Assembly: GCF_022655595.1 (NCBI RefSeq)
Contig: NZ_CP093379.1
Location: forward strand, 1-64,000
Length of the DNA stretch: 64,000 nucleotides
From: Ignatzschineria rhizosphaerae
GTDB lineage: Bacteria; Pseudomonadota; Gammaproteobacteria; Cardiobacteriales; Wohlfahrtiimonadaceae
Reading direction: 5' to 3'
Shown in pieces: positions 27,630 to 30,410 of this stretch. The notes under the pieces were generated by a model, which worked only from the letters and a program-made list of their open reading frames with translations, did not search any database and had not been told where the DNA came from. Within the stretch, counting starts at the first letter, position 1. The number at the start of each line of letters is the position of its first letter. The position numbers and the translations under genes are program-made.

Positions 27630-27660
27630 AGATTAAAAGATCATAATTATCAGTAAGGGA

Positions 27661-27684
27661 GCCATGATTATTCATGGCTTTTTT
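27661..27684 (+). terminator. Rho-independent terminator after the YkvI-like gene
   Basis: GCCATGA-TTAT-TCATGGC followed by six T residues, 31 nt past the stop. Confidence 0.88.
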
Positions 27685-27830
27685 AATAATAAAGTTTAAA
27701 ACGTCACGACAATGATTCTAGAAATTGAGAGATATTGCTTGACCAGATCATAAGGAGTGGGTCATTATTGACAAAGAGGCTTTTAATTAAAGGCCTTAGA
27801 TAAAAAAGTGGATATTCCTGAGGAGGATAT

Positions 27831-27923
27831 ATGGCCATAAAACTTAACAAGATACTTGTTAAAAAGCTGGCATTATCGCTACTATTTATAGCGTTTACAT
27901 CGATTACATTTCTTTCGGCTTAA
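27831..27923 (+). CDS. 30-aa single-helix membrane peptide (previously unlisted small gene)
   Basis: A 31-codon frame starts at an ATG with a full AGGAGG Shine-Dalgarno 5 nt upstream and ends at TAA. The peptide has a basic, amphipathic N-terminus with five lysines in the first 12 residues (MAIKLNKILVKK), then one hydrophobic segment of about 17 residues (LALSLLFIAFTSITFLS) and a final alanine. A strong rho-independent terminator begins 20 nt after the stop, and the preceding gene is closed by its own terminator, so this is a free-standing transcription unit of about 200 nt. It could be a small inner-membrane regulator or a type I toxin-like peptide; I recognise no family. Confidence 0.6.
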   Translation: MAIKLNKILVKKLALSLLFIAFTSITFLSA

Positions 27924-27942
27924 ATTTTAAATTGCCGGAATA

Positions 27943-27973
27943 AAAAAGAGATACCTAAATGGTATCTCTTTTT
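27943..27973. terminator. Bidirectional terminator between the small gene and lon
   Basis: A 13-bp perfect stem AAAAAGAGATACC with complement around TAAAT, with A and T flanks; it can end both the small-peptide transcript and the convergent lon transcript. Confidence 0.9.
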
Positions 27974-28022
27974 GCTTATGGGGTTATCCCTCTATTACTA
28001 TTAGTGATAGTATTTTTTGAGA

Positions 28023-30410
28023 TTAAAAGAGCAGTTTTGCTACTTCCTTAAAGTCTTCGACAAAGTGCAGTGTTAAGCCATCACGCAGATAATCAGGCAA
28101 TTCATCGGCATCTTTTTTATTGCCTTTAGGGAAGATAATTTCTTTAATTCCCACACGTTTTGCCGCAATTAGCTTCTCTTTAACACCACCGATAGGTAGT
28201 ACTTGTCCAATAAGGGTGAGTTCTCCTGTCATGGCAATATTTTTGGGTGCCTTATTAAGTGCTAGTGACATTAAGCAAGAGGCCAGTGTAATGCCGGCAC
28301 TTGGTCCATCTTTAGGCGTTGCTCCTTCTGGCGCGTGAATATGAATAAAGGCTTTTTCAAAGAAACTCTCTTGTAATCCAAGCGTCGCTGCATTTGCCAT
28401 AATATAGCTATAGGCAATATTGGCAGATTCTTGCATTACTTCTCCAAGCTGCCCTGTAATTTTAATCCCCCGCTGTAGATCATGGATTTTTACAGCTTCC
28501 ACAGGAAGAGTCACGCCGCCGAGCGATGTCCAGGCAAGTCCTGTGATAACGCCAACATTTTTCACAGGTTTATCCCTGTTAAAGTATGGATTACCAAGGA
28601 ATGGCACAATATCATTAACGCCAACAGAGAAGTTTTCTAGCGCTTCTGTTTCAAATTTAACAGCCGCTTTACGAACAATTTTTGCTAGTTGCTTTTCAAG
28701 TTGGCGAACACCTGCTTCTCGCGCATAATCATCAATAATCTTTTCGATCGCTCCCGCTGTGATACGAAGTTCTTTCTTATCAAAACCTGCCTTTTCTAAT
28801 TGACGAGGCCAGAGGTATTGACGGGCAATTTTACTTTTTTCTTCTAAAATATAGCCAGAAAGTCTAATTACATCCATTCGGTCTAAAAGCGCCGGCGGAA
28901 TAGAATCGAGCGTATTTGCGGTACAGATAAAGAGAACATTTGAGAGATCATAGCGAACATCTAAATAGTGATCTAAGAACTCCCCATTTTGCGCGGGATC
29001 TAATACTTCAAGTAAAGCAGATCCTGGGTCTCCTTGGAAGGATTGCCCCATTTTATCGATCTCATCGAGCATGATGACAGGGTTATCTGCCTTTGTCTCT
29101 TTTAGTGCTTGGATCAGTTTACCCGGCATTGCTCCAATATAGGTACGGCGATGCCCTTTAATCTCCGCTTCATCACGAGCGCCACCTAAGCTAAAGCGAT
29201 AAAATTTACGGCCAAGGCTATCGGCAACGGAGCGCCCAATTGATGTTTTACCCACGCCCGGAGGACCTACTAAAAGAATGATCGTACCTTTGATCTCTCC
29301 TTTACGTTTACCCACCGCAAGCGTTTCAATAATACGATCTTTCACATCTTCTAATCCAAAGTGATCTCGATCTAAAATACGGCGGGCATTTTTAAGGTTA
29401 AAGTTATCCTCTGTCTTATTACCCCAAGGAAGATCGGTGATGATATCAAGATAGTTACGAGTAACGCCATATTCAGGAGATCCTGTTTCTAATACTTGGA
29501 GTTTTTCAAACTCATCATCAATACGCTCTTGGGCCGCAATTGGAATGGTTTTATCAAATAAACGCTCTACAAACTTATCAATATCGGCCGCTTTATCATC
29601 TTTCGCAAGCCCAAGCTCTTGTTGAATGACTTTAAGCTGCTCACGCAAGAAGTATTGTCTTTGCTGATCTGATAATTGATCATCAACCTCTTCACGAATA
29701 GAGTTGTGAAGTTTCGCAATTTGAATCTCTTTTTGGACGATCGCAAGGACTTTGCGTAATCTTGGAACGAGCGGAACCGTTGAGAGAACATCTTGCAGTT
29801 CCTCTTTTGAGCCGGTTGTCATACTTGCTGAAAAGTCGGCAAATGGCGATGGATCATTACTATTAAAGCGTGTTAAGAAGTGCTTTAGCTCTTCAGAGAA
29901 AAGAGGATTAAACGGAATAAGCTCTTTAAGCGCATTAACAACCGCCATTGAATAAGCCCGCACTTCTTCTGATTTATCAACCATAGACTCATCAAAATAT
30001 TCAACTTGTGCGACAAAGGGGATCTCTTTAGAGATCCATTTTTTAATACGAAAGCGCTGTGTTCCTTGGGCAATAAATTGCACTTTCCCATCTTCTCTAT
30101 GAGGATGATGAATGTGAACTAGCGTCCCGTATTCATAGAAATCATCAGTTTTTAGATCGCTATGGCGCTCTTTTTTGGTTAAAACAAGCCCAATGACTCG
30201 TGTTCGATTATCCATAATGGAATCGAGGGTTGTCAGCCATGGCTCTTCATTTAAAAGAAGAGGCGCAATTTGTGGTGGAAAAAATGGTCGGTCACTGAGT
30301 GGAAGGATATGGATGATATTTGAAACCGTATCTCCTTCGATAATGACCTCGTTATGCCCTTTAACATCGCTGTCAACGGCTGGCAGTGTCGTTTTTTTAT
30401 TCTCACTCAT
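28023..30410 (-). CDS. lon: ATP-dependent Lon protease, AsrA-like subtype
   Basis: A 795-aa cytoplasmic AAA+ serine protease. The N-terminal substrate domain (about 30-230) begins LPLSDRPFFPPQIAPLLLNEEPW, which resembles the Pseudomonas AsrA-type second Lon rather than the E. coli form. The AAA+ domain has Walker A GPPGVGKT at 382-389 and Walker B IMLDEIDK; the protease domain has the Ser/Lys dyad Ser704 in PKDGPSAG and Lys747 in GGVKEKLIAAKR. AAGGAATCCT precedes the ATG. AsrA in Pseudomonas is linked to the heat-shock response. Clp or cell-division genes, common neighbours of canonical lon, are absent; whether a second lon exists cannot be told from this window. Confidence 0.93.
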   Translation of the reverse strand: MSENKKTTLPAVDSDVKGHNEVIIEGDTVSNIIHILPLSDRPFFPPQIAPLLLNEEPWLTTLDSIMDNRTRVIGLVLTKKERHSDLKTDDFYEYGTLVHIHHPHREDGKVQFIAQGTQRFRIKKWISKEIPFVAQVEYFDESMVDKSEEVRAYSMAVVNALKELIPFNPLFSEELKHFLTRFNSNDPSPFADFSASMTTGSKEELQDVLSTVPLVPRLRKVLAIVQKEIQIAKLHNSIREEVDDQLSDQQRQYFLREQLKVIQQELGLAKDDKAADIDKFVERLFDKTIPIAAQERIDDEFEKLQVLETGSPEYGVTRNYLDIITDLPWGNKTEDNFNLKNARRILDRDHFGLEDVKDRIIETLAVGKRKGEIKGTIILLVGPPGVGKTSIGRSVADSLGRKFYRFSLGGARDEAEIKGHRRTYIGAMPGKLIQALKETKADNPVIMLDEIDKMGQSFQGDPGSALLEVLDPAQNGEFLDHYLDVRYDLSNVLFICTANTLDSIPPALLDRMDVIRLSGYILEEKSKIARQYLWPRQLEKAGFDKKELRITAGAIEKIIDDYAREAGVRQLEKQLAKIVRKAAVKFETEALENFSVGVNDIVPFLGNPYFNRDKPVKNVGVITGLAWTSLGGVTLPVEAVKIHDLQRGIKITGQLGEVMQESANIAYSYIMANAATLGLQESFFEKAFIHIHAPEGATPKDGPSAGITLASCLMSLALNKAPKNIAMTGELTLIGQVLPIGGVKEKLIAAKRVGIKEIIFPKGNKKDADELPDYLRDGLTLHFVEDFKEVAKLLF

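What the first reader, a model, noticed from the sequence alone, without database searches (positions are those of the whole stretch)
27831..27923. Free-standing gene for a 30-aa membrane peptide between ykvI-like and lon
A 31-codon frame has a full AGGAGG ribosome-binding site 5 nt before its ATG, encodes a lysine-rich N-terminus plus one hydrophobic helix, and is followed within 20 nt by a perfect 13-bp terminator. The gene before it is already terminated at 27684, so this is an independent unit. The combination is far from random expectation, and short length would hide it from normal gene callers. It might be a small membrane regulator or a toxin-like peptide.
Basis: partly seen in the sequence, partly recalled or inferred. 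Interest (0 to 1): 0.7.

Follow-up and report, generated by a model that had tools for sequence, protein, structure and literature searches.

The report
Conserved 30-residue membrane-peptide gene beside lon
Between two ordinary genes of an Ignatzschineria bacterium lies a very short gene that a distinct second species also keeps; it would make a 30-residue membrane peptide from a messenger RNA that seems to fold over its own start site, so it is probably a real but overlooked regulated (perhaps toxin-like) small protein.

Summary
The 13-bp terminator is symmetric and lies between convergent genes, so it can also end lon. The SD-ATG-ORF combination alone is not rare: about 0.4 ATG cases of 25-60 codons are expected per 64 kb of random sequence.

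Comparison makes the case. Among nine genomes of the genus (Ignatzschineria), only G008 has the peptide. It is also 30 residues there, 53% identical, and also faces lon. DNA identity is 75% over an ungapped 118-bp block running from just before the SD to exactly the stop codon, while lon silent sites are near saturation and the flanks do not align. The upstream gene differs (ykvI here, lysR in G008), so the unit is self-contained. A sigma-70-like promoter scores highest on the + strand at about the same place in both.

Silent sites are also unusually conserved. The sense RNA has a conserved hairpin covering the SD and start codon, with one compensatory G-C to A-U change (whole-block P=0.034).

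Most likely this is a real, lineage-restricted gene for a positively charged single-helix membrane peptide with structure-gated translation, TimP- or type-I-toxin-like in design. No conserved antisense promoter was found, so type I toxin-antitoxin membership is not claimed. Toxicity versus regulation is undetermined.

The parts
27739..27768 (+). Predicted sigma-70-like promoter TTGACC-N18-CATTAT, start of transcription about 27775
   Evidence: Best + strand score in 27701-28010 (8.8). The best + strand hit in G008 is TTGACG-N18-CATGAT (8.5), 102 nt before its ATG against 92 here. Prediction only.
27808..27838 (+). Conserved RNA hairpin pairing 27816-27819 with 27824-27827 (in the SD), 27813-27815 with the AUG 27831-27833, and 27808-27811 with 27835-27838
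   Evidence: RNAalifold on two sequences: all 11 pairs kept, one compensatory G-C to A-U (27811/27835) and one C-G to U-G.
27821..27826 (+). Shine-Dalgarno AGGAGG, 4 nt before the ATG
   Evidence: Sequence; identical in G008.
27831..27923 (+). Small ORF, 30 aa: K-rich N-terminus (K4, K7, K11, K12) and one hydrophobic segment, residues 13-30
   Evidence: Homologue in G008, L002:1498-1590 (-), 30 aa, 53% identity; DNA block 27806-27923 75% identical, ungapped.
27943..27973 (.). Bidirectional intrinsic terminator shared with convergent lon
   Evidence: 13-bp perfect stem with A-tract and T-tract, folds on both strands; an analogous terminator lies in G008.
27660..27684 (+). Terminator of the upstream ykvI-like gene, which separates it from the small gene
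   Evidence: Sequence: AGCCATGA-TTAT-TCATGGCT followed by T5.

Best explanation
A real, lineage-restricted small-protein gene with its own promoter and a terminator shared with lon. Its roughly 200-nt mRNA (about 27775-27975) encodes a 30-residue peptide with a positively charged N-terminus and one hydrophobic helix, predicted to insert in the inner membrane like an uncleaved signal anchor (N-in). The mRNA's own hairpin covers the SD and AUG, so the peptide is made only when something opens the hairpin (inferred). The most likely role is a tightly held membrane-active peptide that perturbs the inner membrane when released, like TimP or membrane-associated type I toxins. Shown here: the ORF, its conserved length and SD, selective constraint on the block, unit independence, and a conserved sense-strand structure (modest statistics). 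Inferred: transcription, translation, membrane insertion, and the toxin-like action.
For: A lon-linked homologue in G008 has identical length and no indels. Conservation covers 27806-27923 and stops at the stop codon; no other significant match exists in the intergenic region. lon between the same two genomes has pS=0.64 and pN=0.02, so neutral sites are near saturation, yet the ORF differs at only 26% of nonsynonymous and 34% of synonymous sites (binomial P about 3e-10 and 0.002-0.007). Substitutions are hydropathy-conserving (P=0.02), and no charged, amide, Gly or Pro residue enters the hydrophobic segment. The upstream gene differs, ykvI versus lysR, so the unit stands alone. The top + strand promoter hit lies at about the same place in both. 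The SD/AUG hairpin is conserved in the sense strand (whole block P=0.034, first 56 nt P=0.019, antisense P=0.57) with a compensatory change. TimP (PMC7667032) is a toxic inner-membrane peptide with an uncleaved signal sequence, Ala at -1 and Leu at -3; this peptide ends L-S-A (L-A-A in G008). RBS-sequestering mRNA elements in type I toxin mRNAs are described in PMC8309996.
Against: Only two sequences carry it. Within the ORF pN/pS is about 0.75, and differences by codon position are 11/6/8, so there is no classical coding signature on its own. Seven of nine congeners lack it. There is no family match. No antisense promoter is conserved beyond chance (P=0.31). In the full-length G008 fold the SD pairs elsewhere than in the consensus hairpin. 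The tighter hairpin P value (0.006) was computed on a stretch chosen after seeing the fold. There are no expression data.
Confidence: 0.45

Rival explanations
1. A non-toxic small membrane regulator that binds and modulates one larger membrane protein, as MgtS, KdpF or MgrB do (known from general knowledge), made on demand through the same gated mRNA.
For: Same anatomy and the same evidence of selection. A stand-alone unit is usual for such proteins. Restriction to two species could follow a lineage-specific partner.
Against: No partner gene is linked: the upstream neighbour differs between the two species, and the convergent gene is lon, a cytosolic protease. Nearly half of the residues change without indels, which suits a generic membrane helix better than a specific interface.
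Confidence: 0.33
2. A small non-coding RNA of about 200 nt; the ORF is incidental and the constraint is on RNA sequence or structure.
For: Silent sites are conserved beyond lon's, pN/pS is about 0.75, and sense-strand structure is conserved.
Against: The conserved block ends exactly at the stop codon, the frame and 30-codon length are kept with no indel, the SD-ATG is kept, and changes conserve hydropathy. Random change of the same amount breaks the frame in 43-55% of trials. Rfam gave no match at gathering scores; all weak hits are far below them.
Confidence: 0.13
3. A relic of a secreted protein's gene (a signal peptide left without its mature part), or a chance ORF.
For: The peptide resembles a signal sequence; the weak order-wide hit in G018 (E 0.019) is the signal peptide of a 91-aa protein.
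Against: Two species share the same stop position and much more identity than neutral DNA at this divergence. No longer homologue was found in 57 relatives, the order's 32 genomes, plasmids or viral contigs.
Confidence: 0.07

Closest known systems
TimP/TimR (Salmonella; PMC7667032)
   Same: Small hydrophobic peptide from a stand-alone gene with an uncleaved signal-sequence-like segment (Ala -1, Leu -3); translation held down post-transcriptionally.
   Different: TimP is 38 aa with the hydrophobic part N-terminal and is repressed by an sRNA encoded at its flank. No such RNA is shown here, and there is no evidence of shared ancestry.
Membrane-associated type I toxins (TisB, AapA1, Fst, ZorO, Ldr; review PMC8309996)
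   Same: Under 60 aa, hydrophobic, single predicted helix, positively charged; RBS masked by mRNA structure; short transcript ending in a terminator.
   Different: Most have positive residues near the C-terminus, predicted cytosolic; here all positive residues are N-terminal and the C-terminus should face the periplasm. No antisense antitoxin found; no family match.
Small regulatory membrane proteins (MgtS, KdpF, MgrB; general knowledge)
   Same: About 30-50 aa, one transmembrane helix, often stand-alone units missed by gene callers.
   Different: No linked or inferable partner and no sequence match.

Membership tests
Type I toxin-antitoxin system (membrane type) | Small hydrophobic peptide under 60 aa with one predicted transmembrane helix | tested here: met
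   30 aa, mean Kyte-Doolittle 2.11 (1.86 in G008) over residues 13-30; feature list from PMC8309996.
Type I toxin-antitoxin system (membrane type) | Antisense RNA antitoxin, cis or trans | tested here: inconclusive
   Best aligned antisense promoter pair inside the block is no better than chance (P=0.31); a divergent candidate RNA shows no special pairing in either genome (P about 0.8). A trans RNA elsewhere was not sought.
Type I toxin-antitoxin system (membrane type) | Toxic when over-expressed, relieved by the RNA | not testable with these tools
   Needs an expression experiment.
Type I toxin-antitoxin system (membrane type) | mRNA structure masking the ribosome-binding site (frequent, not universal) | tested here: met
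   Consensus hairpin over SD and AUG, 11 of 11 pairs kept in both sequences with one compensatory change; modest significance, two sequences only.
Known small-protein or toxin families (Pfam, NCBIfam, PHROGs) | Profile match | tested here: not met
   No family for the window peptide in any of the three libraries; only two weak unknown PHROGs (E 0.26 and 0.49) for the G008 peptide.
Leader peptide of an attenuator | Downstream gene on the same strand behind the terminator | tested here: not met
   The next gene, lon, is convergent.

The most novel reading that the evidence does not exclude
A new family of membrane-active, toxin-like peptides in Ignatzschineria, with selection acting on both the peptide and the mRNA that hides its start site, controlled by a still unknown RNA or signal.
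Probability: 0.25. Interest if true: 0.45.

Novelty: new member of a known kind. Interest (0 to 1): 0.33.

Why it matters
It is an example of a short gene with no match in the libraries searched, recognisable only by comparing genomes. It gives a concrete, testable candidate for a structure-gated membrane peptide in a genus for which a search of the held papers found none on small proteins. It also shows a useful pattern: conservation that begins at the SD and ends at the stop codon, with unusually conserved silent sites.

Tried and rejected
Chance: rejected by conservation in G008, not by the SD/ORF alone. A second copy in G008 (C92:21857) turned out to be the same place: contigs C92 and C150 share a 131-base end. 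Leader peptide or attenuator: rejected, lon is convergent. Antisense promoter inside the ORF: aligned candidates at the same position and spacing in both species, but no better than shuffles. Divergent sRNA from the strong minus-strand promoter-like site 27774-27747: no pairing signal. Rfam hits (Esr41, aspC, MicX, MicC and others): all far below gathering scores, several overlapping the terminator. Other short DNA matches in the genome (G000 281762 and 559004, G007 C2:89095) were read and carry no similar ORF. The plasmid and viral-contig searches were empty.

Full report
Observation. The ORF 27831-27923 is present as described: ATG, 30 codons, TAA, product MAIKLNKILVKKLALSLLFIAFTSITFLSA. AGGAGG is at 27821-27826, 4 nt before the ATG. 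A perfect 13-bp stem (27943-27955/27961-27973) follows the stop codon by 19 nt. Since lon (28023-30410, minus) converges on it and the stem is flanked by A and T tracts that fold on both strands, the terminator can serve lon as well and is not evidence specific to the ORF. By itself the SD-ATG-ORF arrangement is not rare: 0.37 ATG cases of 25-60 codons are expected per 64 kb of first-order Markov sequence.

Relatives. The window belongs to a 3.07-Mb chromosome. The nearest named lon is Ignatzschineria cameli's (91%). That contig's length (23,756) matches contig C6 of G004, a same-genus genome, so the genus is Ignatzschineria. Of nine genus genomes and 57 relatives, only G008 encodes the peptide (E 0.003, 53% identity over all 30 residues). 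A pattern search for the SD-start region gives the same two genomes only. In G008 it is also 30 aa and also convergent with lon. In G001, lon and ykvI are convergent with nothing but a terminator between them. In G007 the space is filled with about 160-nt tandem repeats. In G002-G006, porin genes follow lon. In G008 the sequence upstream, read through contig C92 which overlaps C150 by 131 bases, is a lysR-type gene in place of ykvI, with porin genes beyond. The unit thus has two different upstream neighbours and the same lon partner.

Selection. blastn between the two intergenic regions gives one significant match, 118 bp, 75% identical, ungapped (E 4e-19), from 27806 to 27923, i.e. from 15 nt before the SD to the last base of the stop codon. 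The lon coding sequence between the same genomes has pS 0.64 and pN 0.02, so neutral sites are near saturation. In the ORF, pN is 0.26 and pS 0.34. Both are well below the neutral level (binomial P about 3e-10 for nonsynonymous and 0.002-0.007 for synonymous sites). Nonsynonymous changes conserve hydropathy (P 0.02), and no charged, amide, Gly or Pro residue appears in residues 13-30. The combined criterion (BLOSUM score, no such residue in the segment, N-terminal charge) is met by 0.2-0.7% of simulated open frames, though that criterion was chosen after seeing the data. The ratio pN/pS of about 0.75 is not a coding signature; the picture is constraint on peptide properties plus constraint on the RNA. 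A shared caveat is that lon's silent sites are taken as the neutral yardstick and only two sequences exist.

RNA. RNAalifold on the block gives 23 pairs, all kept in both species, two with changes on both sides. The 5' hairpin pairs UCCU (27816-27819) with the SD (27824-27827), UAU (27813-27815) with the start codon (27831-27833), and GUGG (27808-27811) with CCAU (27835-27838). In G008 the pair 27811/27835 is A-U instead of G-C; the change at 27835 alters codon 2 (Ala to Val), so the amino-acid change may be explained by the RNA. Column-shuffle tests: whole block P 0.034, first 56 nt P 0.019, hairpin alone 0.006 (stretch picked afterwards), antisense strand P 0.57. In the full-length G008 fold the SD is paired elsewhere than in the consensus hairpin, but part of it is masked in both genomes.

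Promoter and antitoxin search. The highest-scoring + strand sigma-70-like site is TTGACC-N18-CATTAT at 27739-27768 here and TTGACG-N18-CATGAT in G008, 92 and 102 nt before the ATG, giving 5' leaders of about 56 and 66 nt. This is suggestive, not proof. No antisense promoter inside the block is conserved beyond chance, and a hypothetical divergent RNA shows no pairing signal.

Mechanism and comparison. The best reading is a tightly gated mRNA for a signal-anchor-like membrane peptide. TimP of Salmonella is the closest functional analogue: an uncleaved signal-sequence peptide with Ala at -1 and Leu at -3, toxic to the inner membrane, poorly translated from an abundant mRNA (PMC7667032). The two peptides here end L-S-A and L-A-A. 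Membrane type I toxins are small, hydrophobic and helical, and some need RBS-sequestering mRNA elements in addition to the antitoxin (PMC8309996), but most have C-terminal positive residues, which this peptide lacks. A non-toxic regulator remains nearly as likely. No family library matches the window peptide.

Verdict. A real small gene with probability about 0.85. Coding with RNA-gated translation is likely. A toxin-like role is somewhat favoured over a regulator but unproven. It is a new member of a known kind (lineage-specific small membrane proteins), of moderate interest.

Noticed in passing
L120:3860-4530 (G007): The space between lon and ykvI in one congener is filled with roughly 160-nt tandem repeats carrying inverted repeats (GCTTGCACATTGCCGGCAATC...).
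   Followed up: no
window 27747-27774 (-): The strongest sigma-70-like promoter match in the interval points away from the small gene, overlapping its own promoter, with no minus-strand gene of note before ykvI's terminator; it could start a short RNA.
   Followed up: partly
window 27959-28051 (+): A second hydrophobic 30-codon frame (MVSLFAYGVIPLLLLVIVFFEIKRAVLLLP) starts inside the terminator stem and overlaps the lon 3' end; it has no SD and no counterpart was seen in the G008 sequence, so probably chance.
   Followed up: partly
G000 C1:1876639-1877886 (L024) and congeners L016-L023: Every genus member carries a second lon-type gene, 47-49% identical to the first over the region searched.
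   Followed up: no
L148-L152: A ykvI paralogue (38-39% identity) shows one or two in-frame stop codons in the matched stretch in five genomes but none in G005 and G008; possible decay or edge effects of the alignment.
   Followed up: no
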